DNA of 64,000 nucleotides from Clostridia bacterium (lineage in GTDB: Bacteria; Bacillota; Clostridia; Christensenellales; Borkfalkiaceae): assembly GCA_017463105.1 (NCBI GenBank), contig JAFTPU010000002.1, forward strand, positions 117,740 through 181,739, written 5' to 3'. The notes beneath the pieces are model-generated. The model was not told the origin of the DNA, did not search any database, and saw nothing but the letters and a program-made list of their open reading frames with translations. Both the position numbers and the translations under genes were made by a program. The first letter of the stretch is position 1. The number at the start of each line of letters is the position of its first letter. Below, piece after piece: positions 10,233 to 63,818 of the stretch.

Positions 10233-10243
10233 AGGACGGGAGC

Positions 10244-33903: not shown

Positions 33904-34544
33904 TGGAAACGAAAGCGTATATTTTCGATTTGGACGGCACGCTGGTCGATTCGATGACGGGCGGCTGGATAAAGATGTTGAAGGAATTTCTTGTGAAGCG
34001 TAACGTGCAGTTTACACCGCAAATGATCAAGCGCGGGATCGCGCTCGGGCTTTACGGCGTGGCGCAGGATTTTAAGGAACGGTTCGGCTTTACCGAATCC
34101 GTAGAGGAGATCGTGGCGCAATTCCGCTCCGTTTTGCGAGTAAAATACGAGACGGTCATTCCGCAAAAATCCAACGTGCGCGAAACGCTCGTCGCCCTGA
34201 AGGCGCGGGGCGTGAGCCTGAACGTTTTAACGGCGAGCCCGCACGAATTTTTGGACCCGTCCACGAAACGGCTGGGGCTGTACGAGCTGTTCGACAACGT
34301 TTGGTCGATCGAGGATTTCTCCACGACGAAAGCCGACCCGCTTATCTATAAGACGGCGGCGGAAAGGTTGGGGCTGCCGTTGGACTCGTGCGTTATGGTA
34401 GACGACAGCGTGGCGGCGTTGAAGCCCGCAAAGGAAGCGGGCATGAAAACGATCGGGGTCTACGACGAATTTTCGGCGGGCTACGAGGCGGAAATGCGCG
34501 CGATCGCCGATCAATACATATACGATTTTAAGGAGCTTTTATAA
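33903..34544 (+). CDS. HAD-family phosphatase (phosphoglycolate phosphatase-like)
   Basis: A 213-residue hydrolase with motif I YIFDLDGTLVDS, motif II LNVLTASP, a Lys for motif III in the KADPLIYK region and motif IV VMVDDSVAALKPAKEAG. The alpha-helical cap between motifs I and II is that of the phosphoglycolate phosphatase/beta-phosphoglucomutase group. The substrate is not evident. Overlaps bipA by one base. Confidence 0.88.
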   Translation: METKAYIFDLDGTLVDSMTGGWIKMLKEFLVKRNVQFTPQMIKRGIALGLYGVAQDFKERFGFTESVEEIVAQFRSVLRVKYETVIPQKSNVRETLVALKARGVSLNVLTASPHEFLDPSTKRLGLYELFDNVWSIEDFSTTKADPLIYKTAAERLGLPLDSCVMVDDSVAALKPAKEAGMKTIGVYDEFSAGYEAEMRAIADQYIYDFKELL

Positions 34545-34558
34545 AAGCGTTGCCCCGA

Positions 34559-34588
34559 TCGGAAACGGTCGGGGGAATTTTTTTACTC
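34559..34588 (+). terminator. Terminator of bipA-HAD operon
   Basis: CCCCGATCG-GAAA-CGGTCGGGG, a nine-pair stem with a GNRA loop and one G-U pair, followed by GAATTTTTTT. Confidence 0.85.
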
Positions 34589-34700
34589 TTATACGCGTAC
34601 GCGCATTATATAATAAGGAAGAAAGGTATAAATAGTCGCAAAAACGGGAATGATCGAAAGGAGAAAATAAGGGAAAATAAAAAATATTCCTGTTTCCCGA

Positions 34701-34748
34701 AAAAAGTTAAAAAATTTTTGTAAATGTCAAGAGTAAATGCGAAAAAAG
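34701..34748. promoter_or_regulatory. Severed upstream A/T tract of a host promoter (left flank of the element)
   Basis: AAAAAGTTAAAAAATTTTTG at 34701-34720 and the following 28 bases align well with the region upstream of the tRNA promoter at 63739-63789 (AAAAAGTTAAAAAATTTTTTG... ...AAAAA). This suggests the flank is the former upstream part of the S10 promoter region, now 10.3 kb away. Confidence 0.5.
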
Positions 34749-34772
34749 TTTAAAAATTTTTTAACTTTTTAT
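34749..34772 (-). repeat. Left terminal inverted repeat
   Basis: Minus strand begins ATAAAAAGTTAAAAAATTTT and continues TAAA; identical over 24 bases to the right repeat. It contains the TAA stop codon of the transposase. Confidence 0.8.
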
Positions 34773-35845
34773 AGATTTGCCATATAAAGATTAAAAACTT
34801 CGTTAGCTGTTGCGTAATTTAATACGCCACGTGGATAATTGTTTATCCAATCTTCAACGGATTGAACTTCCTTTGCTGATATATTCACTAAATTTGTACC
34901 TTTGGGAATCTTCCGACGTATTTCTCTATTCATACGTTCGTTTGTGCCACGTTCGCTACTACAATAAGGATGACAATAATACATTTTTGTGCGTTGCTCC
35001 GTTGGGTTAAATATAGAGCGTTCCATACCTTGGCAATCGGAAAACTCGCTACCGTTGTCTACTGTAATACTTTTAAACACTTTCTTAAATCTTTTCTTTC
35101 CGTATTTCTTTTCAAGTATATCCAAAGCTTTTACGACACAAGCAGATGTTTGCGAGGGGATTCGTACAATAATTTCTTTACGAGTTAAACGCTCGTTTAA
35201 AGTTAGAAGGGCAACCTTTTTCTTTTTATCGCATACACAGTCCATTTCCCAATGGCCAAAGCTCGTCCTGTTGTTTATTTCAACAGGGCGTTTTTCTATA
35301 CTTTCGCCACGTGGAACTTTTGCTGGGCGCAAAACCCTTGTCTTTCTCTTTCTACGCCCTTTTAACGGTAAATGTTGTAACGTTAAATTTAAAAATACAC
35401 CCTTATCTATGTAATTATATAACGTGCGAACGCAAATCGAAGTGGAAAATGGTAAATTTTCTTTCTTTATGCGTCCAATAACAGCCAACGGTGTACGGCC
35501 ATTTTCTATAATTTCCTTTTCGATATAGTTTGACAACTCAAAATCATTGCCGATTTTAAGAGGTGCACCTTTGGCTTGCAAGTTTTGTTTATACTTTTCT
35601 TCCGCTATATCAGGGCAATACATAGTTTTATATTTATATCCTTTTACGTCGCCATAATATCTATCGTAAATTTTTTCTTTCTTTTCATATAACCCGCGTT
35701 TTATTTCGCGGTATATTGTACTTATATGTACGCCCAATTCTTCGGATATGGCTTTCATTGATAATTTATGGCGCAACCCTTCTTCAATGCGTAACCTGTC
35801 GGTAAAGGTTAAATGGTTAAATTTTCTTTTGCTTTCCTTTTTCAT
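34769..35845 (-). CDS. IS30-family DDE transposase
   Basis: A 358-residue transposase. The N-terminal helix-turn-helix (LTFTDRLRIEEGLRHKLSMKAISEELGVHISTIYREIKRG) is the IS30 DNA-binding part. The catalytic core shows the three acidic residues in GHWEMDCV, ITVDNGSEF and the NERMNREIRRKIPKGTN block that ends the family signature. IS30 enzymes cut and join DNA through circular intermediates and prefer palindromic or end-like targets. The stop codon is inside the left terminal repeat. No matching repeat exists just beyond its start, so it is not a free-standing IS but part of the larger element. Confidence 0.92.
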   Translation of the reverse strand: MKKESKRKFNHLTFTDRLRIEEGLRHKLSMKAISEELGVHISTIYREIKRGLYEKKEKIYDRYYGDVKGYKYKTMYCPDIAEEKYKQNLQAKGAPLKIGNDFELSNYIEKEIIENGRTPLAVIGRIKKENLPFSTSICVRTLYNYIDKGVFLNLTLQHLPLKGRRKRKTRVLRPAKVPRGESIEKRPVEINNRTSFGHWEMDCVCDKKKKVALLTLNERLTRKEIIVRIPSQTSACVVKALDILEKKYGKKRFKKVFKSITVDNGSEFSDCQGMERSIFNPTEQRTKMYYCHPYCSSERGTNERMNREIRRKIPKGTNLVNISAKEVQSVEDWINNYPRGVLNYATANEVFNLYMANL

Positions 35846-35882
35846 TTTTTTGTATTACCCCTTGGTTTCGTGGAAACAGCGA

Positions 35883-36145
35883 AAGGGTGGCGACGGCTAC
35901 CGCCTTTCTTGCGCCACCCTTATTTTATTGCTTTTGTTTATACCCCTTTACATATCCCCTTTAAATCGTCAAGCACCTAAAAAACTTATTCCTTAATGCA
36001 GTGGCTTACCATAAGTTTTTTTGCCTTTTACAATTTCTGCAAAAGGCACCGTCGAGTAAAAACGGTAACCGTTTTTATGCTTGACAATTTAAATTGGATA
36101 TATGCTCCGCCTGTTAAGAGGTTGCACGCGACGAGTGCAACCTCT
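35883..36145. promoter_or_regulatory. Cluster of palindromes in the 387-base gap upstream of the transposase
   Basis: No gene is visible. Inverted repeats: AAGGGTGGCG/CGCCACCCTT (35883-35892 with 35912-35921, 19-base loop); GCCTTTT/AAAAGGC near 36023-36047; a near-perfect palindrome TAAAAACGGT-A-ACCGTTTTTA (36057-36077) directly before a TTGACA (36081-36086) with no good -10 box; and AGAGGTTGCAC/GTGCAACCTCT (36117-36127 with 36135-36145). Possible roles are operator, single-strand origin, or the packaging hairpin that filamentous phages need. Confidence 0.6.
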
Positions 36146-36232
36146 ATCTATTATTTGGGGTAAAGGTTTGCCGTTCGTGGGGGTGGTAGTCGATGCACCC
36201 GGTAGACAATAATAAAGGCAGGTAAAGGAAGT

Positions 36233-36352
36233 ATGGAAAAGGAAATGCCAATGCTCAACGATAAGCATACGCAACGCATAATCGAATATTTGCGTACGCT
36301 TGGTTGGAAAGAAGAAAAAATCCTTGCTTTTATCGAATACATAACACGATAA
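36233..36352 (+). CDS. Small protein, 39 residues, unknown
   Basis: Reads MEKEMPMLNDKHTQRIIEYL and then RTLGWKEEKILAFIEYITR. Two short helices are likely. A good ribosome binding site (TAAAGGAAG) precedes the ATG at 36233; in-frame ATGs at codons 5 and 7 are alternatives. It begins the plus-strand gene group of the element. No family recognised. Confidence 0.6.
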   Translation: MEKEMPMLNDKHTQRIIEYLRTLGWKEEKILAFIEYITR

Positions 36353-36538
36353 AAACAAGGACTGTAAACTCGTAACCGAGCTAACAAGGGAAAGTTTACC
36401 AGACACACCTTGATAGCTCAATCGGTGGGGTAGGTAAACTTGCCTGCCTACCCTTACCTAACTTTTCTTTATTATACCATAAAAAAAGGAACAAAGGCAA
36501 GCAAAAAATACACATTTTATAAAAAAGGAGCAAAACTT
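36353..36538 (+). other. Non-coding spacer with hairpin in the element
   Basis: Contains GGGTAGG/CCTACCC (36428-36434 with 36447-36453, 12-base loop) and T-rich sequence after it. The piece TTGATAGCTCAATCGGTGGGG looks like a tRNA D-arm but no anticodon or T-arm follows. No gene supported. Confidence 0.4.
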
Positions 36539-36775
36539 ATGTTTAATCAAAAAATTTACAAAAAAACAAAAGAAGACGTTAAAGCAATTTTACACGCATT
36601 AAACGAATCGGACGATGAGGCTATCATTTGGGTAGCCGACCTTCCTTCCGATAAATTTATTGATTCGAAAGGCGAAGTCCAAGCATTATTTCTTATGTCC
36701 GTAGGGGATGAAGAATTTAAAATTTCACGTAGACTAAAAGAATACCTTATCGAAAAAGAAGTGCTTATTCCATAA
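36539..36775 (+). CDS. Small acidic protein, 78 residues, unknown
   Basis: Starts at ATG 36539 behind AAAAAAGGAG (MFNQKIYKKTKEDVKAILHAL). Mixed helix/strand and acidic, with no membrane segment and no motif I recognise. An upstream in-frame extension exists but lacks a binding site. Lies between the 39-residue gene and the nuclease-like gene, all on the plus strand, so they are likely co-transcribed cargo or control genes. Confidence 0.6.
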   Translation: MFNQKIYKKTKEDVKAILHALNESDDEAIIWVADLPSDKFIDSKGEVQALFLMSVGDEEFKISRRLKEYLIEKEVLIP

Positions 36776-36863
36776 CAACACAAAAAAGGACGGTGTGCCG
36801 TCCTTTTTTATTTGACATTAGAAAAGAAATTTACTATAATATTCCAAAAAGGAGCGCAAAAAT

Positions 36864-37628
36864 ATGAAGAAAGATATATGCCCGATTTGCGGAAAAGCTA
36901 CTTATTTGGTTTATGGAAAACACCCAAGAAAAGACGGATTATGTAAAGAACACGCCGAACAGCTTTTCAATAAAGAAATTGAACAATGCCCGGATTGCGG
37001 AAAATGGAAAAAAGTAAAAGACGTTTGTGATTGTAAAAAACCTAAAAATGAAATTGCTGAAACCAAAAAACAACCAACACAAAACATTATCATTGACAAA
37101 GTTATTCGGTGTATAACTTGTGGATATGAAACGGACGGGAAACTTTTTTGCAAGAAATGCTATTCAAAATATTGCGAAAAAGAAATCTTAATTAAAATTA
37201 AAAACTGCAAAGAAATAGTCCCCCTTGATGATTTTTACGAGGGATATTTCGAGTGTGATGATGGACACGTAGTAAAAAGTATGGCTGAAAGAGAAATTGA
37301 CAACCATTTATTTGCAAACAACATTAAACACGGATATGAAATACCATTACCGTTATCGGATGAAAAAGGGAATAGAGTAACTTTACATCCCGACTTTTGT
37401 GTATTTGACGAAGGCGGAAAGCCTTTATATTACATAGAATATTGGGGCTATGATGATAGCAATAGAGATTACACAAAAACAAAAAAATTTAAATTACCTT
37501 TGTACGAAAAAGCAAAAATCACGCTTATAAATGTAAATGCTAAAAACGATTTACGTAATTTAAAAACTAATTTACAATACAAAATCAATAACTACAAAGA
37601 AGGAAAAATAAACTTCTTAAATGATTAA
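36864..37628 (+). CDS. Zinc-ribbon protein with PD-(D/E)XK nuclease-like C-terminus
   Basis: A 254-residue protein. The N-terminal half has paired cysteines (CPICGK, CPDCGKWKKVKDVCDC, CITCGY, CKKCYSKYC), likely zinc sites. From residue 139, SMAEREIDNHLF, then HPDFCVF (Asp 177) and YYIEYWG (Glu 192) match the E...D...ExW pattern of PD-(D/E)XK nucleases such as those with an 'EYWG' core. It stands alone on the plus strand among minus-strand phage-like genes, which suggests cargo: a DNA-processing enzyme or a defence or superinfection factor. Substrate unknown. Confidence 0.6.
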   Translation: MKKDICPICGKATYLVYGKHPRKDGLCKEHAEQLFNKEIEQCPDCGKWKKVKDVCDCKKPKNEIAETKKQPTQNIIIDKVIRCITCGYETDGKLFCKKCYSKYCEKEILIKIKNCKEIVPLDDFYEGYFECDDGHVVKSMAEREIDNHLFANNIKHGYEIPLPLSDEKGNRVTLHPDFCVFDEGGKPLYYIEYWGYDDSNRDYTKTKKFKLPLYEKAKITLINVNAKNDLRNLKTNLQYKINNYKEGKINFLND

Positions 37629-37653
37629 AAAGCGGGGAAATTCCCCGCTTTTT
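37627..37653. terminator. Bidirectional terminator between nuclease-like gene and ATPase gene
   Basis: AAAAAGCGGGG (37627-37637) pairs perfectly with CCCCGCTTTTT (37643-37653), loop AAATT. It overlaps the stop codons of both converging genes. Confidence 0.9.
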
Positions 37654-39829
37654 AATTTTCACGTAACTTCTTATATTCTTCTTGCGTATGAGAACGTTGT
37701 TTATCTAGCTCTTTGGGTGTGGCGGTTAAGCCTTTGTACGTTTCGATATCCATTAAGCCTATTTCGTTTTCTTTCGCACGACCTTCAAATATCGAACTCA
37801 TACAATCGGTAGTATACCGTGCGCTATACGTCTTTTTATCCTGGATATAATACTTCTTTCGAAATCCCTCGCCTTCCATGCGCCCACGTTCCACCGTCAA
37901 TATCATCTCACGGTATCCGTAAAGATTGCACGTCCGTTTTTCATACTTATAGCAAAGCGAAACAAGGTTATGTAAGATATATCGGAACAACGTAGAATCG
38001 CCCCGGCTGTATTTATCCTGGATATAATTTCTTGTAAACTTGCCGAAGAAGAAATCGAAGAGCAAAGAGAAGAAATAATACGGTGCAAAAAAGGGCAATG
38101 TTAAACGTTGCGATTGCTTTTCATCAATATGTATTACTTCGCCAAGACCGCGAACGTCAATACCCAAACTTTCACAACGTTGCATTTCGCCGGTAAAAAC
38201 TACGAAATTAACGTTGCGTACGGTTGCAACGTGCCGAATCATCTTAATACACTCGTGCGTTAAATCGTTCTTTTGATTACACTCTTTATCCGTCGCCTTT
38301 ACTTCCTTTAACGTTTGCGTATTTTTCAATTCCTTATCCAGCTCGGTAACAACATAAATGCCATATCCGATAGCGTTTCTATTGGGGTTATCCTTCCACA
38401 TTTGTTTGCCAAGACGCAACAAATCGAAGTCTAATATATGGCAACGCTGCGAATACGTTTCCACAAGCATTTTATCGCGTTTGAAAAAATCGTAGTCCCA
38501 AAGGGGGAAATTACCTTCATCGCTTCGTATTCCGTCCGTCCGAATCGAATAATTCGCCAGAATAAGCGAACACTCAATGGTATATATCAAATACGCCTTT
38601 GCATAGTCCATCAATGCCTGCCAAAGGCTTTCTTCCTTTAAGTTATCATAAAACGAAGTTGGATGACGTTCGTAATCATAGTTCCAAAAGTTTTCCCGGC
38701 ATGGCTCGCTCTTAAATTTCTTATAGCGACGTTTGAGCCACCGTTCACAGGTTAAAAGCGTAAATATCTCGTGCGTTTCCATAGCCTTCTTTAAATCGTC
38801 CTCGTAATTTGACCAGGGAAAATTTGGATATAGCATATTAATTTCTAACAGGATCGTAAGCGCACGTTCTCTAAATTCCGCTTCCAGCGACAACGACATA
38901 TCCATATCCATTTGTGTTTTACCCGTACCCATTTCGCCGTCTATAATAAACGTTATTCCACGTTCGTCTAAAAAAGCACGGTTTTTCCTTTCATTATGGT
39001 ACAAACCGTCATAACCAACGTGGCGAACGATTAAGTGCAGGAAGAAGAAAAATATCGCCGTCCATATCACGCCCGGGAAGAAATCTATCACAACAGATAA
39101 GTCCATTAACAGTTTTAGCAACTGCGTATACAGGTCCGTCAACTGCAAACTTGCGATGAAATAGATATAGAACGCGATAAATTCGAGAACGATCGCGATG
39201 AAATTAAAGCTATACGCCCAAACAAACGCCCAAGTCTTCCACCAAAACGAATTATAAACGATAAACGATATAAAATTTTTTATCCAATCACGAACGGGAG
39301 CGCAAACTTTATCCTCAAAACGTTTCCAACGTTTCAAAGCTTTGCTTTCCACGTTCCGGGCATTATTCGTAACCGGCTTTTTTATCGCCTTGTATATTAG
39401 CCAAAAAACCAAAAACGGCATAGCAATTAAAAGGACCTTGGAAAGAATCTCTAAAAAATCGGCATACGACGTCATATACGTAAGTATATTATCGCCGGTA
39501 ATAAAAACTTTCCAATAGTTTCCCCAGGATACCTTAAATTCTTCCCACGTCATAGGCAAATCGAAAGGCATTTCAAACGGCATTTTCGTATAATCTAACA
39601 CGGTTATTTTGCCGTAAATTTGCAGGTTAAACAATTCCGCTACGTAGAATTTGCACGAGTTCCAAATATCCACGAAAGACTCGCCAAGACGGCCAAGCGC
39701 ATACGGAAAGCGAAAAATAGCAAGCAAAACACTTACGACCGTAAACCCAGCGCAAATATAATGCCGATAATCAAGCGTCTTCGCTCGAATAAAAATATTC
39801 TTCGCTCGTTTCAATATCTTCGTCCACAT
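37652..39829 (-). CDS. Membrane-bound Zot/pI-like P-loop ATPase
   Basis: A 725-residue protein proposed to drive filamentous virion assembly at the membrane. Residues about 24-45, 125-150, 200-230 and 248-270 are hydrophobic segments; a further one is near 578-598. The P-loop GEMGTGKT is at residues 298-305, a Walker-B-like IYVVTELDKE at 491-500, and a Zot-type late motif RHVATVRNVNFVVFTGEMQRCESLGIDVRGLGE at about 532-564. Usual inovirus pI proteins are near 400 residues with one C-terminal membrane segment, so the long membrane N-terminus is unusual. A conjugation-type pump ATPase is the alternative. It overlaps the 51-residue gene upstream and has AGAGG before its ATG. Confidence 0.7.
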   Translation of the reverse strand: MWTKILKRAKNIFIRAKTLDYRHYICAGFTVVSVLLAIFRFPYALGRLGESFVDIWNSCKFYVAELFNLQIYGKITVLDYTKMPFEMPFDLPMTWEEFKVSWGNYWKVFITGDNILTYMTSYADFLEILSKVLLIAMPFLVFWLIYKAIKKPVTNNARNVESKALKRWKRFEDKVCAPVRDWIKNFISFIVYNSFWWKTWAFVWAYSFNFIAIVLEFIAFYIYFIASLQLTDLYTQLLKLLMDLSVVIDFFPGVIWTAIFFFFLHLIVRHVGYDGLYHNERKNRAFLDERGITFIIDGEMGTGKTQMDMDMSLSLEAEFRERALTILLEINMLYPNFPWSNYEDDLKKAMETHEIFTLLTCERWLKRRYKKFKSEPCRENFWNYDYERHPTSFYDNLKEESLWQALMDYAKAYLIYTIECSLILANYSIRTDGIRSDEGNFPLWDYDFFKRDKMLVETYSQRCHILDFDLLRLGKQMWKDNPNRNAIGYGIYVVTELDKELKNTQTLKEVKATDKECNQKNDLTHECIKMIRHVATVRNVNFVVFTGEMQRCESLGIDVRGLGEVIHIDEKQSQRLTLPFFAPYYFFSLLFDFFFGKFTRNYIQDKYSRGDSTLFRYILHNLVSLCYKYEKRTCNLYGYREMILTVERGRMEGEGFRKKYYIQDKKTYSARYTTDCMSSIFEGRAKENEIGLMDIETYKGLTATPKELDKQRSHTQEEYKKLREN

Positions 39830-39926
39830 ACTTATCTACCTCTTTTGCCGTATGGATGAAATATCCAATCACAAACACCAAAAACAACGTTAATAAAACG
39901 TATAATAATGTCTTAAATCTGCTCAT
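39771..39926 (-). CDS. Small membrane protein, 51 residues
   Basis: MSRFKTLLYVLLTLFLVFVI then a short acidic, tyrosine-rich tail (DEDIETSEEYF). One membrane segment with a basic N-terminus. The minus-strand ATG at 39924-39926 follows AAGGTATGGTGT. Its end overlaps the ATPase gene by 59 bases in another frame, implying coupled translation. Candidate minor virion or assembly protein; no family recognised. Confidence 0.55.
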   Translation of the reverse strand: MSRFKTLLYVLLTLFLVFVIGYFIHTAKEVDKYVDEDIETSEEYFYSSEDA

Positions 39927-39942
39927 ACACCATACCTTTTTC

Positions 39943-39971
39943 TTGACTTTTACTTTCTTATTGTTTATAAT
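39943..39971 (+). promoter_or_regulatory. Promoter of the 69-residue membrane protein gene
   Basis: TTGACT (39943-39948), exact 17-base spacer, TATAAT (39966-39971), then AAAGGA and the ATG at 40005. Confidence 0.85.
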
Positions 39972-40004
39972 GAAACCACTACTTATCATTAAAGGAATTA
40001 TACT

Positions 40005-40214
40005 ATGTCTATTTTCAATTTGTTAATGCAATCAGGTGATGGTAAACCCGACAACTATTTTAAATATAAAATGGAAATTCCACCCATTATTTTCATTATT
40101 ATAATTTTAATGTTTGCACTCTTTATAATCTTAACAATCAAATTATACAAATGGGGAACAAGTGACCCCCATAAAAACAATAAGAAGAATAAAAATGATA
40201 AAGACGACGAATAA
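40005..40214 (+). CDS. Small membrane protein with GDGKPDNYF motif; coat-protein candidate
   Basis: A 69-residue protein: a short N-terminal part containing GDGKPDNYFKYK, one long hydrophobic segment (about residues 26-48) and a basic, hydrophilic tail (HKNNKKNKNDKDDE). The strong promoter, strong AAAGGA site and this acidic/hydrophobic/basic layout suit a major coat protein of a filamentous phage, but there is no signal peptide. The motif is shared with the C-terminal region of the 478-residue protein next door on the other strand. Convergent with that gene; they share a terminator. Confidence 0.55.
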   Translation: MSIFNLLMQSGDGKPDNYFKYKMEIPPIIFIIIILMFALFIILTIKLYKWGTSDPHKNNKKNKNDKDDE

Positions 40215-40230
40215 TCGTCTTTTATTTTTT
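40200..40230. terminator. Shared terminator
   Basis: AAAGACGA (40200-40207) pairs with TCGTCTTT (40215-40222), followed by TATTTTTT; overlaps the stops of the two converging genes. Confidence 0.75.
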
Positions 40231-41658
40231 ACCTCTAAATAGTCGTCCTAATATCCTAAACGGAAGCGTGATAACGTAGATCACTACTTTCAAGATAAAT
40301 TTTAACGCGCTAAATATAGGGGATAATATACCGCTACAAAAAATTAAAATAACAACAAGCAATACAATGCCTATTATCATTAAGATTTTTTGAAGAAGTT
40401 CTTCAAGTTTTTCCGCATTAAATTCAAAATTAAAATAATTATCCGGAATACCGTCCCCGGTTTGCTTATTATCAACAACGCCAAGATTATATATCACACC
40501 GTTTGTTTCAAATTTTAACCGAAGAATACTTACGTCTGAAACCCTACTTCGGGTATATTCATATTTATCCGTCGTAAGGACCGAGTCATACTCCGTTTCA
40601 ACAAAACGTAAAACCCATTTTTTTCCTTTTAATTCTTTAATGCTTTCATCCGTTAAACCAGACTCCACAAACCATGTTTTAAATTCTTCGGTTTCAATAA
40701 ACTTATCGACGGTACAAATCCTTTTCCAAGCATGCATTTCAGGGAAAAACACCCCAACGTCAACACTACCTTCATTGTTATCGCTATTTAAGTAAACGTA
40801 TTCTTTGGTTGATATTTCTTCATCTTTTAAAACAATCCCCATTACAGCACTATAATTATACGTTACCTTAGTGTACATTACGTCCGCTTCCATAAGCTTA
40901 TCGATTACCTTATCCGTATCGAAAGCAATATAATGACTATCTACTTGGTCATCTATACCAAACAAGGGAATACCCTGTTTGTATCGCAATAGTCCTATGT
41001 ATTTACTCGTTATATGGATAACTTCCGTATCCAACTCGTGATAAGTGGGCAAGCCATTAGAATCTTCTAATTCGCCTATACGTATCATTTTAGCAACCGG
41101 ATAAGAAACTTCACTAATAGTGTTTCCGTTTTCGCCTTCCTTATCACCCATAGTTGAATTCCACGCACGAAAAACCGACGATATTTCATACGTGCGCATA
41201 TCTATATCCTGTACCGTATACCCTTCTACTAAGTACTTAAAAAAAACACCACTGCTATTTAACAAAGACAATTTATAATTTTTAAATAAGGCATTTTCTA
41301 AATATTGTTCAACCTCCGAACTGCTTTCAGGGATATTATCACTTATACTAGCGGGACGTTCCCCATTAGACATATTAACCGAGGTGGCAACCATGTGTTT
41401 ATTGCCTGCGCTTGGCTGGTAGAGATATAAAAACAACTGTCCCGTCGTGCTTTCCATAATGGATAAAAAATTTAAACTATAATCGTTAATATCCGCAGGG
41501 TATTGATTGACGTCAAAATTTTCAATCCGAGATAAGTCATCTATAACGTAAGTATAATCAGCCGAAATTTGATTATCCGCCGATACCTTCACAACCGGAA
41601 AAAACACAGAAAAAAAACTTACTACACTCAACAACAACGTTAATAAAATTTTTTTCAT
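40222..41658 (-). CDS. Exported membrane-anchored protein, adsorption-protein candidate
   Basis: A 478-residue protein with a cleavable signal (MKKILLTLLLSVVSFFSVFF, cleavage near SADNQ), a large external region, then GDGIPDNYFNFEF followed by one or two hydrophobic segments (about residues 420-465) and a basic tail (RILGRLFRGKK). Signal at one end and membrane anchor at the other is the layout of filamentous-phage pIII-type proteins, which bind the host and cap the virion. The start at 41656-41658 is set by GAGGTGTGTT; an upstream in-frame ATG lacks both a binding site and a sensible signal peptide. The family seems widespread in gut bacteria but I know no tested function. Confidence 0.6.
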   Translation of the reverse strand: MKKILLTLLLSVVSFFSVFFPVVKVSADNQISADYTYVIDDLSRIENFDVNQYPADINDYSLNFLSIMESTTGQLFLYLYQPSAGNKHMVATSVNMSNGERPASISDNIPESSSEVEQYLENALFKNYKLSLLNSSGVFFKYLVEGYTVQDIDMRTYEISSVFRAWNSTMGDKEGENGNTISEVSYPVAKMIRIGELEDSNGLPTYHELDTEVIHITSKYIGLLRYKQGIPLFGIDDQVDSHYIAFDTDKVIDKLMEADVMYTKVTYNYSAVMGIVLKDEEISTKEYVYLNSDNNEGSVDVGVFFPEMHAWKRICTVDKFIETEEFKTWFVESGLTDESIKELKGKKWVLRFVETEYDSVLTTDKYEYTRSRVSDVSILRLKFETNGVIYNLGVVDNKQTGDGIPDNYFNFEFNAEKLEELLQKILMIIGIVLLVVILIFCSGILSPIFSALKFILKVVIYVITLPFRILGRLFRGKK

Positions 41659-41723
41659 AACACACCTCAAAACAATAGTGGACGGCTTATCCAACCGCCC
41701 ACCATTGTTTTTATTTAATCTTG

Positions 41724-42635
41724 TTATTCGATGACAATTAAATTTTGAACATTTTGCAAAACAGAGTCGGAAACTCTCATAAACTCGTTACTGGTAGTCC
41801 CCTCAACTCGAAGAGCGTAGTTGAAAAGTACGTATCTCGTAGCATCCTTTAATTCGGCAGAAGCATATTCTGCGCCATCGTCCCTAACTGCTTGCTGGCC
41901 TAAATAATTCATATTTTTATCAAACTCGAAAACTTCCAGCTGGCCGACGTTACCACCGTTTTCAGAAGCTTTATTTAATTTGATAGTTTTATTGGAAACT
42001 TTCAATAAATGAAACGTTGTACCACCCGAATCTTCAAAACTTGTTAACTGTACAACGCCGTCAAGAACTTTCCAAGAGCCTCTCACAAAACGCATATTCG
42101 AAACGTTATCAACCGTCATCACAGATTGACCGCTAAAAACATAACTCTTTTGTTTTTGTTCTTTCTTTACCTTGACTTCCATTTGCGCCGGATAGCTGAT
42201 TTTCTCTTTCCAATCAATTTTATCATCCTCATCGGCATTCGGCTTAATCACGATACGCGCATACGTTCCATATGCCACATCCGAATAACCCTCCGTCAAT
42301 AGATCAGTAGACTTTACAAAATTTCCAACGTCATCATAATAGAAAATTTGATAATCGATTTTGTTATCAAAATCAAGTTTGACTTGTAATCCATCACATT
42401 TGAACGATTCCTCCGTATAAAGCATTCCTTCATCTTCTACGTACTTACCATCAGTACCTAATGTACCAACCTCAAACGAAGGATGAATCGTCTTCAAATC
42501 GTCGTTGACGTGTTCCACCAATTTTGTAACACCGAAGACGGCGCCACCAATCGTCACCAAACCTAAAACCGTTGCAAGAATTCTCTTCCACAAAGGTCTT
42601 CTATTAAATCTCTTAATTGAACTTTTAATACTCAA
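41724..42635 (-). CDS. Membrane protein with large external domain, unknown
   Basis: A 303-residue protein with a basic N-terminus (KSSIKRFNRRPLWKRI), one membrane segment (about residues 18-38) and a beta-rich outer domain (QIFYYDDVGNFVKSTDLL, ARIVIKPNAD, GTTFHLLKV), similar in style to carbohydrate- or surface-binding phage proteins. The start is TTG (42633-42635) behind AGAGAGGT, a rare start codon. Type II topology. It lies between the 99-residue gene and the signal-peptide protein on one transcript. Candidate minor virion protein. Confidence 0.55.
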   Translation of the reverse strand: MSIKSSIKRFNRRPLWKRILATVLGLVTIGGAVFGVTKLVEHVNDDLKTIHPSFEVGTLGTDGKYVEDEGMLYTEESFKCDGLQVKLDFDNKIDYQIFYYDDVGNFVKSTDLLTEGYSDVAYGTYARIVIKPNADEDDKIDWKEKISYPAQMEVKVKKEQKQKSYVFSGQSVMTVDNVSNMRFVRGSWKVLDGVVQLTSFEDSGGTTFHLLKVSNKTIKLNKASENGGNVGQLEVFEFDKNMNYLGQQAVRDDGAEYASAELKDATRYVLFNYALRVEGTTSNEFMRVSDSVLQNVQNLIVIE

Positions 42636-42752
42636 TTTTTTTACCTCTCTTTTTTTTATTTTTTAATGATAAATTTTAATTGCAAATCAAAAAAACGATA
42701 AGCTATGGAAACGTATCTTTTTTCTTCATTTCACACCTCTAAAAATATCTTA

Positions 42753-43052
42753 CTATTTTTCTATTCCGAAATAAGCAACCGTTTTTCGAGTACGTTTGCC
42801 TTTATCGTCATAAAAATGTCCCACAATTTGTTTTTTCGCTGTTCTGTTTAAGTCATAAGTATTACCCTTGAACGTCGGTTTTTTCTTATCGCTTGCAGTA
42901 ACAACCATATTTGGCATAGACATCTGTATTTTACCCACAAACTTATATTTTGGGTTAAGTTTACGTTTACCATTTTTGCCTTGTACCCAAGCTTTATCGG
43001 CAGAAATTAATCTCACGCCCTTATGTTTTAAACTATAATTAACAGTTGACAT
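42753..43052 (-). CDS. Basic protein, 99 residues, unknown
   Basis: Lysine-rich and beta-strand-rich (KGVRLISADKAWVQGKNGKRKL, GKIQMSMPNMVVTAS, VGHFYDDKGKRTRKTVAYFGIEK), no membrane segment. Such small basic proteins in ssDNA phages are often DNA-binding, but nothing specific is visible. AAGGAAAAAG precedes the start. It follows Rep after a 130-base structured spacer. Confidence 0.5.
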   Translation of the reverse strand: MSTVNYSLKHKGVRLISADKAWVQGKNGKRKLNPKYKFVGKIQMSMPNMVVTASDKKKPTFKGNTYDLNRTAKKQIVGHFYDDKGKRTRKTVAYFGIEK

Positions 43053-43078
43053 TTCTTTTTCCTTATGTTATACTTATT

Positions 43079-43183
43079 AAGCCATCAGCCCCCAAAAGGG
43101 GAAGCAACGGGATTTCCGCGTTGACAGAGAAGAACATCTGGCTTTTAGTGTAGACTTCTCATTAACCGTCCGAAAGGGCGGTT
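43079..43183. other. Folded spacer between Rep and the 99-residue gene
   Basis: AAGCCA (43079-43084) pairs with TGGCTT (43139-43144), enclosing two hairpins: CCCC-AAAA-GGGG (about 43089-43101) and CAACG/CGTTG (about 43106-43122). A further hairpin AACCGTCC/GGGCGGTT (43164-43183) is followed by ATTTTTTATT on the plus strand and overlaps the Rep stop codon. Could be a control region, second-strand origin or packaging signal. Confidence 0.5.
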
Positions 43184-44333
43184 ATTTTTTATTAAAAATA
43201 CTTTGCTGTTCTATATCAAAAATATCAGTTGTAGATGGTTCACACATTTGGTCAAATATAGCATTAAAATTCGTTTTAGGTTTTTGTTCACGCCTTATAT
43301 TTACAACACCGTTAACATATTGATTGCCTAACCCTTTCGGATTTCCACGTTCGTCTAAACCGTCGTTATACACGGTAATTGTCGTTTCCGTCATCTCTAT
43401 GTAACAGCCTATTCGGCGATAAAATTGATTTAAGTCTTCGTGGGGGATGATACGCTCATATCCACGACACTTTATCACACCCTTATACCAAAACTTTGGT
43501 GGAACAGAGGACGTTAATACGATTATTTTTCCGTCAAAAACTTTATTATTATAACGTCCGAACATTGTACTTGCTGTATGATTGTCCAAACATTTCAACA
43601 TATCTTCAAAGTCCATTGACCTATCGCGGATATCGTCTAATATGATTCCCCATTGACCTTTATAGTCCTGAAACATATCGTTAGAGGAAGAGGATATACA
43701 ATAATCGTAACCCATTTTTTCCAAAAGCTGTTTGGCATAGTAGGTTTTACCTGTCCCACCTTTACCATAAATAAACACAACGTCTATATCACGATTTGGT
43801 TCAAGCGAACGATAATCACACTCTAGTTGCCAACGGCTTTTCAGTTCTTTATAGTACTTTAATTGTTTGTCCGGGGAAAGAGAGTGTACGTACGCAAGCT
43901 GTTTTGCGTAGCTATACTTACTAAAATCACCAAAGGTTCGTTCAATTTCCGCCTCTTTTACAAAATCGAAATTTGCCGTAACCTCTTCCGGACGATACTG
44001 GTGCTTAAATTGTTGACTATCGTTATTATGCGTTAAATAATCTAAAACGGAACCCGTTTTTATTATCTTGTTTACGTATTGTGGCTCCAAACCAAACCAC
44101 TTTGCTACGTCCGTAAATTTTACGCTTGCGCGTCCAAAATTAAGATATATATGATAGTGCGGACTTTCCAAAATACCTTTTTCGTTATAGTCCTTATCAT
44201 GTATAATGAAAGCGTACTTTTTAATTGTTTTATAGCGCTTTATTGTATCCATAGGTGGCTCATTGAAGTATGGAACGTAGTTCATAACTTCACACTCTTT
44301 TCCACATAATGGCTTTTTTTCCTTTCCTTTCAT
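43182..44333 (-). CDS. Rolling-circle replication protein: HUH nuclease plus SF3-type helicase
   Basis: A 383-residue initiator. The N-terminal nuclease has the HUH metal motif PHYHIYL (residues 58-64) and a catalytic tyrosine in VLDYLTHNN (Tyr 99), with KHQY a little later, as in Rep_2 (pMV158-type) proteins. The C-terminal part is a helicase with P-loop GKGGTGKT (190-197), Walker B GIILDDIRD (229-237) and motif C IIVLTSSV (270-277). This combination is that of CRESS-DNA virus Reps and of the bacterial pCRESS plasmids considered their relatives. All motifs are intact, so it is probably active. An iteron-bearing hairpin region lies upstream. Confidence 0.88.
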   Translation of the reverse strand: MKGKEKKPLCGKECEVMNYVPYFNEPPMDTIKRYKTIKKYAFIIHDKDYNEKGILESPHYHIYLNFGRASVKFTDVAKWFGLEPQYVNKIIKTGSVLDYLTHNNDSQQFKHQYRPEEVTANFDFVKEAEIERTFGDFSKYSYAKQLAYVHSLSPDKQLKYYKELKSRWQLECDYRSLEPNRDIDVVFIYGKGGTGKTYYAKQLLEKMGYDYCISSSSNDMFQDYKGQWGIILDDIRDRSMDFEDMLKCLDNHTASTMFGRYNNKVFDGKIIVLTSSVPPKFWYKGVIKCRGYERIIPHEDLNQFYRRIGCYIEMTETTITVYNDGLDERGNPKGLGNQYVNGVVNIRREQKPKTNFNAIFDQMCEPSTTDIFDIEQQSIFNKK

Positions 44334-44358
44334 TTTTTTACCCCTTTGAAAGCAAAAG

Positions 44359-44511
44359 TTTTTCCCATTTTTCCCAATTTTTCTCGGCGCTTGGACAAGC
44401 CCTGCGCCGAGAAATAGAGAATATTATTTTTTGTAGGAAATTAAAAGAATTTATTTAACTGTTTTATGTAAATACTTATACACAATTTTCCCATTTTTCC
44501 CATTTTTCCCA
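44359..44511. promoter_or_regulatory. Replication origin candidate: iterons around a hairpin
   Basis: Copies of the nine-base unit TTTTTCCCA occur twice at 44359-44376 and three times at 44485-44511 (the first with one T fewer). Between them is a perfect ten-pair hairpin, TTCTCGGCGC/GCGCCGAGAA (44381-44390 with 44404-44413), loop TTGGACAAGCCCT. Direct repeats next to a hairpin just upstream of a rep gene are the expected form of a rolling-circle double-strand origin. Confidence 0.7.
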
Positions 44512-44590
44512 ACTATACACCTTTTATAGAAAGTATTGATTAATTAAAAGAGTCGTCCTCGTCTTCATTGTCTTCCTGAATAGGGGCTTT

Positions 44591-44821
44591 TTAAGAGTTT
44601 TTACCACTTCCTTTTTTGTCGGGCAATACAGTTGCAAATGCGGACATTAACGTTTTACGTGCGCCATACTGCCTGTCCGTATTCGTTTCCTTGTCAGGGA
44701 AGTACTTTACTTCAACAGGAACGAGTTGATCGCCACATTTCACGTAAAAGTTGGTTGCAACCTTGTCGTTGCCGTATTGGTCTTGGTAAGATACCGTCTT
44801 TTTGTACAAATCTACTGTCAT
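44591..44821 (-). CDS. Small protein, 76 residues, unknown (ssDNA-binding candidate)
   Basis: Beta-rich start (MTVDLYKKTVSYQDQYGND) and TNFYVKCGDQLVPVEVKYF, then a helix and lysine-rich end. It is the first gene of the minus-strand block, upstream of the origin and Rep, with a strong AAAAGGAGC site. Small beta proteins before Rep in ssDNA elements are often single-strand-binding proteins (gpV-like). No diagnostic motif. Confidence 0.5.
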   Translation of the reverse strand: MTVDLYKKTVSYQDQYGNDKVATNFYVKCGDQLVPVEVKYFPDKETNTDRQYGARKTLMSAFATVLPDKKGSGKNS

Positions 44822-44905
44822 TTTATTGCTCCTTTTGGCTATATGCCACTTAAAAATATTTATTTACAATGCCTATACGGCTAATTGTATCAAAGGGGGC
44901 GCAGT

Positions 44906-44924
44906 TACCCACTGCGCAAGGGTG
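44906..44924. other. Short hairpin near the right end of the element
   Basis: GCGCAGT and ACTGCGC pair perfectly around TACCC just upstream of the 22-codon frame. Not followed by T's. Confidence 0.5.
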
Positions 44925-44946
44925 TTTTCATAACAAAGGAGGTTAT

Positions 44947-45015
44947 ATGAAAAACAGGGAAGAAAAGAACAAACTTTTGATGAATATTCTTTTCGCATTT
45001 AATATTACCACATAA
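44947..45015 (+). CDS. 22-codon open frame ending in the right terminal repeat
   Basis: MKNREEKNKLLMNILFAFNI and two Thr, then TAA inside the terminal repeat. The ribosome binding site AAAGGAGG with ideal spacing is the strongest argument for translation. It may be a leader peptide, a toxin-like peptide or the truncated front of a gene cut at the element border. The sequence TAATATTAC (45000-45008), the geminivirus nick nonamer, lies within it. Confidence 0.4.
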   Translation: MKNREEKNKLLMNILFAFNITT

Positions 45016-45035
45016 AAAGTTAAAAAATTTTTAAA
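45012..45035 (+). repeat. Right terminal inverted repeat
   Basis: ATAAAAAGTTAAAAAATTTT and TAAA, identical over 24 bases to the complement of 34749-34772. The host promoter begins 18 bases further on. Confidence 0.8.
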
Positions 45036-45052
45036 ATTTTTCGTTCAAACGC

Positions 45053-45081
45053 TTGACAGGGGCTTGTAAATTTGGTATTAT
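45053..45081 (+). promoter_or_regulatory. Promoter of the S10 ribosomal operon
   Basis: TTGACA (45053-45058), 17-base spacer, TATTAT (45076-45081), in the context GCTTGACA...GGTATTATA, the same as the tRNA promoter at 63790. The A/T tract ahead of the -35 box is now provided by the element's terminal repeat. Confidence 0.9.
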
Positions 45082-45087
45082 AAATAG

Positions 45088-45335
45088 GCTGTGTAAAAAC
45101 GCGGTGTATGGGTTGATACGGGAAGTTACTGAAATTTAAGGCTGAAAGCCGCCTTGACAGATAATTTCCGTTGACAAAAGTGGGGGCTCGACTCCTGCGA
45201 CTAACCGAGGCTTTGCGTAAGAACGCTCGGAAAAAATAATGAGTGTTTTTATTTTGCGGAATACCTCGATACACACGGGTGAGTTGATACAGCAAATAAA
45301 ACGTTAGTATAAACAGCAAAAGGAGTAACACAAAA
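45088..45335 (+). promoter_or_regulatory. Long untranslated leader of the S10 operon
   Basis: About 250 bases without a gene. ACGGGAAGTTA near 45118 can pair with TAATTTCCGT near 45163, enclosing a GGCT/AGCC hairpin. GTTGATAC occurs twice. A leader of this length before rpsJ suggests feedback control, in other bacteria by L4, but I do not recognise a known L4-leader structure. Confidence 0.5.
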
Positions 45336-45635
45336 ATGGCAGTACAGAAAATCAGAATCAAGTTGGCGGCGTACGACCACGAACTCGTAGACGAAGCGGC
45401 AAGCCGTATCGTCGAAACGATGAAAAAGAGCGGTGCGAAGATCTCCGGTCCCATTCCCCTTCTTACGGAAAGAGAGATCGTAACGATCCTCCGTTCGCCC
45501 CACAAATATAAAGATTCCCGCGAACAGTTCGAAATGAGAACGTACAAGAGAATCATCGACATCTATTCGCCCAACGCGAAGCTTCTCGATTCCATTCACC
45601 TCCCCGCAGGCGTGGACATCAAGATCAAGCTTTGA
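45336..45635 (+). CDS. rpsJ: 30S ribosomal protein S10
   Basis: First gene of the S10 operon; 30S head protein and, with NusB, an antitermination factor. The 99-residue protein contains the family stretch [18 protein letters not shown] and the signature [27 protein letters not shown] precedes the ATG. Normal length. Confidence 0.98.
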
Positions 45636-45716
45636 TCGTAAGGCAATCAAAACATCGCCGAGAAATACTTTCAAAGGTATTCGAGAATAAAAAATTTTAA
45701 GGAGTGAACTTTATCA

Positions 45717-46352
45717 ATGAATAAAGCAATCATCGGTCGCAAAGTGGGTATGACCCAGATCTTTGCAGAAGACGGGAAATTGATCCCCGTCACGGTAGTG
45801 GAGGCAGGTCCCTGCCCCGTAGTTCAGGTAAAGACGGTGGAGAACGACGGTTACGCCGCGTTGAAGCTCGGCTTTATCGAAACGAGCGAGAAGGCGCTTA
45901 CGAAGCCCGAGCTCGGACAGTTCAAGAAAGCAGGCGTTAAGCCCCACAAGGTCTTGAAAGAAATCAGAGTCGCAAACGCGGAAACCTACACGGTAGGCAC
46001 GGAGCTTAAAGCGGACGTGTTCGCGGCGGGCGACAAGGTAGACGTATCGGGCGTGACGAAAGGTCACGGTTTCACGGGCGTTATCAAGAGATGGAATCAG
46101 CAGAGACTGAAAATGACGCACGGTACCGGCCCCGTTCACAGAGAACCCGGTTCTATGGGTCCTATCAGCTCCCCTTCGAGAGTGTTCAAGAACAAGCACC
46201 TCGCAGGTCAGTACGGTGTGGAGAACGTTACCATTCAGAACCTCGAAGTCGTTAAGGTAGATCTGAACAGAAACGCGATCCTCATCAAGGGTGCGATCCC
46301 CGGTCCGAAAGGCAGCATCGTTACCGTATCGGACAGCGTTAAGAGCAAATAA
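45717..46352 (+). CDS. rplC: 50S ribosomal protein L3
   Basis: Binds 23S rRNA near the peptidyl transferase centre and starts large-subunit assembly. 211 residues with IGRKVGMTQIF at the start and the long loop MTHGTGPVHREPGSMGPIS containing the conserved Gln/His region. The Shine-Dalgarno AAGGAG is unusually far (about 14 bases) from the ATG. Confidence 0.98.
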   Translation: MNKAIIGRKVGMTQIFAEDGKLIPVTVVEAGPCPVVQVKTVENDGYAALKLGFIETSEKALTKPELGQFKKAGVKPHKVLKEIRVANAETYTVGTELKADVFAAGDKVDVSGVTKGHGFTGVIKRWNQQRLKMTHGTGPVHREPGSMGPISSPSRVFKNKHLAGQYGVENVTIQNLEVVKVDLNRNAILIKGAIPGPKGSIVTVSDSVKSK

Positions 46353-46367
46353 GGAGAGTGACAGACA

Positions 46368-46988
46368 ATGGCGGCTATTAAAGTATTAAATATGAGCGGC
46401 GCGGAAGTCGGCGAGATCGAATTGAACGATAGCGTATTCGGCGTCGAATATAAAGAATCTTTGATTCATCAGGCAGTCGTTACCCGTCTTGCAAACGAGA
46501 GACAGGGAACCAAATCCACCCTCACGAGAACGGAAGTTCGCGGCGGCGGTATCAAACCTTGGAGACAGAAAGGCACGGGTCGTGCTCGTCAGGGCTCCAT
46601 CCGCGCTCCGCAGTGGATCAAGGGCGGCGTAGTGTTCGCACCCAAATCCCGCGACTTCTCGAAGAAGATGAACGACAAGGCAAAGAAGGCGGCGCTTTTG
46701 TCCGCGCTTTCCAAGAAGGTCGCAGACGGCGAATTCATCGTTGTGGACGAGCTGAAAGTGTCCGCGCCCAAGACCAAAGAGATGGCGGCTTTCGCAAAGG
46801 CGCTCAACCTGAATAAGGCGCTTGTGGTCATGGACAACGACGACGTGAACGTGATCCGCGCGGCGGCGAACCTTCCCAAGCTTTCGACGTTGCCCCTTGC
46901 GCAGCTGAGCACCTACGAAGTAGTGGCGAATGCGAAAGTGGTTATGACGAAGGCTGCGGTTGAGAAATTCCAGGAGGTAAACGCGTAA
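46368..46988 (+). CDS. rplD: 50S ribosomal protein L4
   Basis: Lines the exit tunnel with an extended loop ([31 protein letters not shown]), visible here; in several bacteria it represses its own operon. 206 residues. Its stop overlaps the rplW start (TAATG). Confidence 0.98.
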
Positions 46989-63738: not shown

Positions 63739-63818
63739 GAAAAAGTTAAAAAATTTTTTGAAAATTGCGTAAAAATCCGAGAAAAACGCTTGACAAATAT
63801 CTTTAAATAAGGTATTAT
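63739..63818 (+). promoter_or_regulatory. tRNA promoter with upstream A/T tract
   Basis: AAAAAGTTAAAAAATTTTTT (63740-63759) stands upstream of TTGACA (63790-63795), 17-base spacer, TATTAT (63813-63818). Core context GCTTGACA...GGTATTATA is the same as at the S10 operon, and the A/T tract matches the ends of the mobile element. Confidence 0.88.

What the first reader, a model, noticed from the sequence alone, without database searches (positions are those of the whole stretch)
34749..45035. A filamentous-phage-like element that appears to integrate by IS30-type transposition
Seen directly: an A+T-rich 10.3-kb segment between perfect inverted repeats with an IS30 DDE transposase at one end, a HUH-SF3 Rep, an iteron origin, a membrane P-loop ATPase of Zot/pI type, a signal-plus-anchor surface protein and several small membrane proteins. 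Known: Spiroplasma plectroviruses carry IS30-like transposases; most inoviruses use XerCD or integrases. Inferred: this is an intact inovirus/plectrovirus-like prophage of a Clostridia-like host, with many genes lacking known relatives. A monoderm host needs no secretin, and none is present.
Basis: partly seen in the sequence, partly recalled or inferred. Interest (0 to 1): 0.85.

Follow-up and report, generated by a model that had tools for sequence, protein, structure and literature searches.

The report
Filamentous-phage-like element that targets promoters
A 10.3-kb filamentous-phage-like element of Clostridia appears to jump with an IS30-type transposase into sites just upstream of host gene promoters, and its two ends seem to form its own promoter only when it is a circle.

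Summary
The element is real. Its true ends are 34720 and 45013, not the inverted repeats reported. A 19-bp direct repeat flanks it, and genus relatives show the empty site 20 bp upstream of the rpsJ (S10 operon) -35 box. It carries an IS30-family transposase, a HUH-SF3 Rep with a hairpin/iteron origin, and a membrane ATPase that is a distant Zot/pI relative. Among relatives, 18 insertions have 14-19 bp direct repeats. In 15 of 18 the Rep-side end faces a sigma70-like promoter, versus 1 of 18 at the other end and 4.2% of intergenic control positions. A circular contig, a tandem dimer and a contig-start junction join the ends. Joining the ends builds a -35/-10 promoter reading into ssb-rep in 15 of 18, versus 2 of 18 when integrated. 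New variant: filamentous-phage-like, IS30-mobilised, promoter-targeting. No convincing major coat protein was found and no virion has been shown.

The parts
34720..45013 (.). whole element, 10,294 bp
   Evidence: direct repeat and empty-site comparison
34701..34719 (.). target-site copy, left side of the window (transposase end of the element)
45014..45032 (.). target-site copy, right side of the window (Rep end of the element)
34725..34730 (-). TTGACA at the transposase end: -35 half of the modelled circle-junction promoter
44999..45004 (-). TATTAA at the Rep end: -10 half of the modelled circle-junction promoter (16-bp spacer once joined)
34743..34770 (.).
34769..35845 (-). IS30-family DDE transposase, 358 aa; the only copy found in this genome
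36539..36775 (+). small ORF; found only in the window and in L001, the window's own genome
36864..37628 (+). zinc-ribbon protein with a PD-(D/E)XK-nuclease-like conserved pattern (named by eye)
37652..39829 (-). membrane ATPase, 725 aa, distant Zot/pI relative
39771..39989 (-). small single-TM protein overlapping the ATPase start; such a small protein lies there in many relatives
40005..40214 (+). small TM protein; found only in this genome
40222..41658 (-). surface protein: signal, beta-rich body, C-terminal TM and basic tail; minor-coat-like
41724..42635 (-). N-terminally anchored exported protein
42753..43052 (-). 99-aa basic protein; its family also lies between surface protein and Zot in L161 and L169
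43182..44333 (-). HUH + SF3-helicase Rep, 383 aa
44380..44414 (.). origin hairpin: 11-bp stem, minus-strand loop AGGGCTTGTCCAA
44359..44512 (.). span holding the iterons: five TTTTCCCA units at 44360, 44369, 44486, 44495 and 44504
44591..44821 (-). ssDNA-binding-protein-like small protein (named by eye); some relatives end in an acidic DDDLPF-type tip
45053..45081 (+). host rpsJ promoter (-35 TTGACA, 17 bp, -10 TATTAT), the inferred target feature
45336..45635 (+). host rpsJ (S10), first gene downstream of the target

Best explanation
This is a temperate filamentous-phage-like element of Christensenellales-type Clostridia. Shown by sequence: (1) it inserted in the A/T tract 20 bp upstream of the -35 box of the S10-operon promoter, with a duplicated target; (2) related elements with a homologous IS30-type transposase carry 14-19 bp target duplications, have TTGACW at the transposase side and often a -10-like box at the Rep side, and in 15 of 18 place the Rep end toward a host promoter; (3) circular and tandem forms join the ends, with a spacer that matches the first 2 nt of the flank in the two cases where that flank is known; (4) the joined ends make a -35/-10 promoter pointing into ssb-rep and the rest of the same-strand genes. 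Inferred: the transposase makes a circle by IS30-type copy-out/paste-in. The circle switches on the operon, Rep nicks the hairpin loop for rolling-circle replication, and the Zot-like ATPase with the surface and anchored proteins extrudes ssDNA particles across the single membrane. The circle re-inserts upstream of promoters, where it harms the host little, and the gene set falls quiet again.
For: IS30 assignment. Direct repeats of 14-19 bp at both ends in 17 of 33 transposase-bearing loci plus the G260 dimer; random single placements give a repeat of 13 nt or more in 20 of 3,300. Empty site. Promoter with at most 2 mismatches outside the Rep end in 15 of 18, outside the transposase end in 1 of 18, intergenic control 4.2% of 1,193, any position 2.0% of 9,600. 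Targeted genes include rpsJ twice (window and L104), gyrB, rpoB, rplU and a tRNA cluster. Tandem dimer with 10,854-bp period and outer 15-bp repeats; circular contig L093. Junction promoter 15 of 18 in the circle, 2 of 18 integrated. Hairpin with loop GGGCTYGT upstream of Rep: perfect stems of 9-14 bp in 12 of 13, the thirteenth with the motif in an imperfect hairpin. ATPase-Zot homology with scrambled, FtsK, T4CP and Rep controls. Surface protein upstream of the ATPase in 54 of 56 loci and upstream of 16 of 21 Zot copies. A circular record filed as Inoviridae has mem, surface and Zot homologues in the same order.
Against: No convincing major coat protein: the one conserved small TM family (27 loci) has its charges the wrong way round (judged by eye). 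No Pfam, PHROG, NCBIfam or PDB-sequence hit to Zot for the ATPase; its N-terminal part (several TM helices) is unlike short Zots. The only BFVD fold match under E 0.001 is to a nameless 269-aa protein with weak TM-scores (0.21 / 0.51). The Rep family of the window is found in only 9 of 37 ATPase loci with enough upstream DNA, the ssb-like one in 8 and the 99-aa one in 7. A transposase was found downstream in only 25 of 44 loci with enough DNA; what the others use was not examined. 16 of 33 transposase loci gave no direct repeat by my rule; some lack flanking DNA. IS30 itself makes 2-bp duplications, not 14-19. The -35 half is conditional, because I searched for TTGAC at that end, and the joined ends were modelled with the 13-nt distance seen in the natural junctions. 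In the window itself the -10 half (TATTAA) is only moderate. The window's anchored protein alone finds nothing in phage records. Several targeted genes are not housekeeping or are unknown.
Confidence: 0.72

Rival explanations
1. An integrative plasmid or mobilisable element with a HUH-SF3 Rep that exports or displays proteins by a Zot-like ATPase but makes no virion.
For: No convincing major coat protein; HUH Reps occur in many plasmid clusters, and the same paper says Inoviridae Reps lack the helicase domain (passages of PMC6668415); one hit in viral contigs, in an 84-kb contig.
Against: Surface and anchored protein homologues sit in the same order beside Zot in a circular record filed as Inoviridae and the surface protein lies upstream of 16 of 21 Zot copies; no match in 72,556 plasmid records (queried with the L026 ATPase only); coupling-protein match is limited to the Walker A region.
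Confidence: 0.2
2. Integration by site-specific recombination at a short core (Xer or an integrase), with the transposase a passenger IS.
For: Direct repeats at both ends would also fit att sites; two other relatives of the ATPase sit with what look like serine and tyrosine recombinases (named by eye).
Against: The repeat differs at every site while junctions keep only about 2 nt that match the local flank; the transposase is single-copy in this genome and lies downstream of the ATPase on the same strand in 25 of 25 loci where it was found.
Confidence: 0.08
3. The promoter association reflects selection only: insertion is A/T-directed, and survivors upstream of promoters are the harmless ones.
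For: Targets are A/T-rich in the window and several others; the same 19-mer lies upstream of another promoter-like site at 63740.
Against: Strong orientation bias (15 of 18 against 1 of 18) and -35 distances clustered at 19-21 nt (11 of 18); several targets are not A/T-only.
Confidence: 0.3
4. A degraded remnant that no longer moves or makes particles in this genome.
For: The window lacks genes found in larger relatives; its ssb-like ORF ends before an in-frame acidic stretch.
Against: Transposase, Rep, ATPase and surface protein are open frames and both ends are present.
Confidence: 0.25

Closest known systems
Zot-type inoviruses (order Tubulavirales), e.g. bajarodino virus 12 (PQ006185.1), gut Clade-1 of PMC8530359, Enterocloster inoviruses (PMC10061712)
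   Same: with PQ006185.1: anchored protein - surface protein - ATPase order, homologous anchored and surface proteins, circular form; with the others: Clostridia hosts and a pI-type ATPase (passages only)
   Different: a 725-aa membrane ATPase replaces the ~270-aa Zot; IS30 transposase, where PQ006185.1 has an integrase; no convincing major coat protein identified here
TnGBS integrative conjugative elements (mutator-like DDE; PMC3942029, passages)
   Same: large element mobilised by a DDE transposase that inserts upstream of sigmaA promoters in one orientation
   Different: TnGBS uses a mutator-superfamily enzyme, moves by conjugation, and lies 15-17 bp from the -35 box; here IS30 family, phage-like genes, and the duplicated target ends 19-21 bp from the -35 box in 11 of 18
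IS30 (PMC9333248) and IS1630 of Mycoplasma fermentans (PMC3317919), passages
   Same: transposase family; circle and tandem-dimer junctions with a Pjunc promoter (IS30); 16-26 bp duplications (IS1630)
   Different: a whole phage-like genome is the cargo; the junction promoter would read the replication and morphogenesis genes; promoter targeting
Spiroplasma plectroviruses / Vespertiliovirus (as told in a passage of PMC6668415)
   Same: filamentous phages with IS3/IS30 transposases
   Different: described there as lacking Reps and replicating by transposition; this element has its own HUH-SF3 Rep and hairpin origin
Inovirus protein family iPF_00203 (PMC6813254, passage)
   Same: rolling-circle Rep with an SF3 helicase motif in inovirus-like genomes
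   Different: linked here to IS30 mobilisation and a long ATPase

Membership tests
Inoviridae / Tubulavirales | pI/Zot morphogenesis ATPase | tested here: inconclusive
   Pfam Zot not matched; profile-profile match 90.5%, 50.1% without Walker A, family controls at or below 1.1% there
Inoviridae / Tubulavirales | small major coat protein with one TM | tested here: inconclusive
   98 small same-strand TM ORFs upstream of the ATPase or Zot were clustered; one conserved small TM family (27 loci) has the opposite charge layout to a usual coat (judged by eye)
Inoviridae / Tubulavirales | minor coat/adsorption-like protein upstream of pI | tested here: met
   surface protein homologues upstream of Zot; its role as a coat protein is inferred
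Inoviridae / Tubulavirales | circular ssDNA genome, rolling-circle Rep | tested here: inconclusive
   HUH Rep, hairpin origin and one circular contig; strandedness not shown
Inoviridae / Tubulavirales | filamentous virion extruded without lysis | not testable with these tools
   needs induction and microscopy
IS30 family transposition | IS30-type transposase | tested here: met
   NF033563 at 227 bits, cut-off 80
IS30 family transposition | end-to-end junction with a short spacer | tested here: met
   junctions in G260 and L098, in relatives; L093 circle; none seen for the window itself
IS30 family transposition | 2-bp target duplication of IS30 itself | tested here: not met
   14-19 bp; IS1630 is told to have 16-26 bp (PMC3317919)
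TnGBS-type promoter-targeting elements | oriented insertion at fixed distance upstream of -35 | tested here: met
   15 of 18; 11 of 18 at 19-21 nt
TnGBS-type promoter-targeting elements | mutator-superfamily DDE transposase and conjugation genes | tested here: not met
   IS30 enzyme; coupling-protein match limited to Walker A

The most novel reading that the evidence does not exclude
A lineage of filamentous-phage-like elements has taken an IS30-type transposase that aims, oriented, at host sigma70 promoters, and turned the transposon's circle junction into its lysis-free induction switch: -35 in one end, -10 in the other, so replication and assembly genes are read only from the excised circle.
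Probability: 0.5. Interest if true: 0.9.

Novelty: new variant of a known kind. Interest (0 to 1): 0.8.

Why it matters
Promoter-directed insertion has been described for mutator-type DDE transposases, among them those of conjugative elements (PMC3942029). Here it appears, apparently independently, with an IS30-type enzyme carried by a phage-like element, and the targets include promoters of rpsJ, rpoB, gyrB, rplU and tRNAs. A promoter split between the two ends would be a very simple lysogeny switch that needs no repressor, and is directly testable with a reporter. Relatives of the ATPase occur in 30 of 101 related genomes, its own included, yet there was one match in the 50,697 phage records and one confirmed locus in viral contigs. 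Pfam's Zot model misses the ATPase.

Tried and rejected
Led nowhere: ATPase in viral contigs by single protein and by alignment (one 84-kb contig); PDB sequence search; Rfam on 33500-46500; a search for terminal inverted repeats in relatives, in which I saw mostly short matches that I took for chance; search for a coat protein; Pfam on 64 ATPases. No terminal overlap in 29 of 30 loci tested for circularity (L002 among them was only part of its contig). Literature: ten searches listed no paper that I recognised as describing an IS30-borne, promoter-targeting filamentous phage. Seven papers were opened, in passages or abstract only: PMC8530359, PMC6668415, PMC6813254, PMC3942029, PMC9333248, PMC3317919, PMC10061712.

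Rows dropped: loci L022, L031, L158 and L159 were left out as duplicates, L096 was replaced by the G260 stretch, and L068 (30-nt repeat) was cut by my 21-nt limit; L066 is listed twice, so 34 entries are 33 loci. The control tries one anchor per placement, whereas the real search could try several TTGAC motifs per locus. Two of the 18 elements (L097, G260) are close relatives at different sites.
Full report
Where it is. The window lies in a 1.29-Mb genome in 14 contigs, 80% complete. Named relatives of the element's ATPase include one in Candidatus Borkfalkia, which NCBI places in Clostridia, Christensenellales.

Ends. The reported inverted repeats are not the ends. Comparing near-identical relatives L096, L097 and L098 shows the transposase-side homology stopping a few bases after a TTGAC motif. 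Looking for direct repeats there gave repeats at both ends of 17 of 33 transposase-bearing loci plus the G260 dimer, 14-19 bp long and different at each site, bounding single units of 10.3-18.5 kb. A control with random single placements gave 20 of 3,300. In the window the unit is 34720-45013 with a 19-bp repeat. Genus relatives have the uninterrupted site: the joined flanks score higher than either side as it stands in 24 of 29 relatives and tie in 5, with 97 gap-free columns against L194.

Target. Reading outward from the Rep end, 15 of 18 insertions meet a sigma70-like promoter with at most two mismatches (17 of 18 with at most three). The other end gives 1 of 18 (4 of 18). At two mismatches intergenic positions give 4.2% of 1,193, any position 2.0% of 9,600 and shuffled flanks 3.4%; at three mismatches these rise to 15.0%, 10.2% and 22.7%. 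The -35 box starts 19-21 nt beyond the repeat in 11 of 18; the rest lie between 9 and 30. The first downstream genes include rpsJ (window, and L104 from another MAG), gyrB, rpoB, rplU, homoserine O-succinyltransferase, a sugar transferase and a tRNA Val-Gly-Cys cluster (L063, whose promoter match is weak: three mismatches, 30 nt away). Others are a YitT membrane protein, a DUF1385 protein, a large helicase-nuclease-like protein or unknown. The same A/T 19-mer occurs at 63740, upstream of another promoter-like site. The closest precedent is TnGBS, whose mutator-type transposases insert 15-17 bp upstream of sigmaA -35 boxes with one end facing the promoter (PMC3942029, passages).

Circle and switch. 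G260 has a tandem dimer (period 10,854 bp; the 2,936 bp compared are identical): outer 15-bp repeats, inner junction end-TA-end, TA being the first two bases of its right flank. L098's contig starts in the same junction with AA, again matching its own flank. L093 is a 13,154-bp contig with a 141-bp terminal overlap, hence circular, carrying ssb, rep, surface, ATPase, nuclease-like and transposase genes. No circle was seen for the window itself. This agrees with IS30, which forms circles and tandem dimers with an active junction and a Pjunc promoter (PMC9333248, passages). Joining the ends, with the 13-nt distance seen in the natural junctions, puts TTGACW 16-18 bp before a -10-like box: 15 of 18 with at most three mismatches, against 2 of 18 for the integrated end. 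Rep-side ends have a -10 with at most one mismatch at that spacing in 11 of 18; 2,000 shuffles average 1.2 with a maximum of 6. The -35 half is partly built in, because the ends were found through TTGAC. In L093 the natural junction reads TTGACA-17-TAAAAT. That this switches the genes on is inference.

Replication. The Rep has Rep_OBD and RNA_helicase domains above cut-off. Upstream of Rep lies a hairpin whose loop carries GGGCTYGT: 12 of 13 Rep loci with perfect stems of 9-14 bp and several different stem sequences, the thirteenth (L092) with the motif in an imperfect hairpin; a 9-mer repeated three times or more (iteron-like) in 12 of 13. Nicking in that loop is inference. This Rep family is not universal: 9 of 37 ATPase loci with enough upstream DNA have it, 8 the ssb-like gene, 7 the 99-aa gene, 33 an anchored protein. 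PMC6668415 says that Inoviridae Reps lack the helicase domain (passage), but PMC6813254 notes one inovirus family with it (passage), and Zot loci L160 and L176 have one here.

Assembly module. The ATPase has relatives in 30 of 101 related genomes, its own included, and in 160 candidate stretches of the species-level collection, 79 loci kept. Sequence libraries do not call it Zot. Profile comparison of its catalytic region with 19 Zots of the same order gives 90.5%, E 1.3e-6. The aligned motifs include a DeQRP...aRdL stretch facing DvQRP...nIREL. Without the Walker A region it stays at 50.1%, with 20 scrambles at or below 0.7%, FtsK 0.2%, coupling proteins 0.1%. With Walker A, coupling proteins give 37.8% from 25 columns, and Zot against Rep gives 73.8% from 17 columns, so Walker A alone is weak evidence. 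The whole-length profile against Zot gives only 67.8%. The model is confident (pLDDT 88.2, pTM 0.83), but BFVD gave one match under 0.001, nameless and with low TM-scores; PDB could not be searched.

The surface protein is the stronger link. It lies upstream of the ATPase in 54 of 56 loci with enough DNA and within 6.5 kb upstream of 16 of 21 Zot copies. Some Zot loci were fetched because they hold it; of the 11 top-scoring loci of the Zot search, 7 have it. Pairwise hits are direct. In PQ006185.1, a circular complete record filed as Inoviridae, homologues of the anchored protein, the surface protein and Zot stand in the same order; the anchored-protein link rests on a family profile, for the window's own protein finds no phage record. 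I found no paper on that record.

Missing. No convincing coat protein was found. The conserved small TM protein overlapping the ATPase start has the opposite charge layout to a usual inovirus coat (recalled). The 72-aa and 69-aa TM proteins of the window remain open.

Conclusion. It works like a filamentous phage with a transposon's integration system. Filing it in Inoviridae is not justified while the coat protein is unresolved and no particle is known.

Noticed in passing
window 44520-44821: The ssb-like ORF ends in TAA and is followed in frame by an acidic stretch like the C-terminal tips of some relatives; it may be an early stop.
   Followed up: no
window 63740-63818: A third copy of the 19-bp target sequence lies upstream of a promoter-like TTGACA-17-TATTAT; this host seems to reuse the same A/T tract upstream of promoters.
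   Followed up: partly
L270 (G018:C4) 9523-10764: A relative of the transposase sits near genes that look like a reverse transcriptase and tail proteins of a tailed phage (named by eye).
   Followed up: no
L027 9110-10588; L021 516-1940: Long-ATPase elements in which no IS30 gene was found carry what look like serine and tyrosine recombinases (named by eye): the integration module appears exchangeable.
   Followed up: no
window 36864-37628 and A6: A zinc-ribbon, nuclease-like gene between ATPase and transposase, found in 14 of 44 loci with enough DNA (opposite strand in 13); possible defence or exclusion gene.
   Followed up: partly
L067, L097, L060: A 305-333 aa gene family with a DG-x-HY motif lies between ATPase and transposase in relatives but was not seen by eye in the window.
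   Followed up: no
window 40005-40214: Small plus-strand TM protein shares a GDGxPDNYF motif with the C-terminal region of the surface protein.
   Followed up: no
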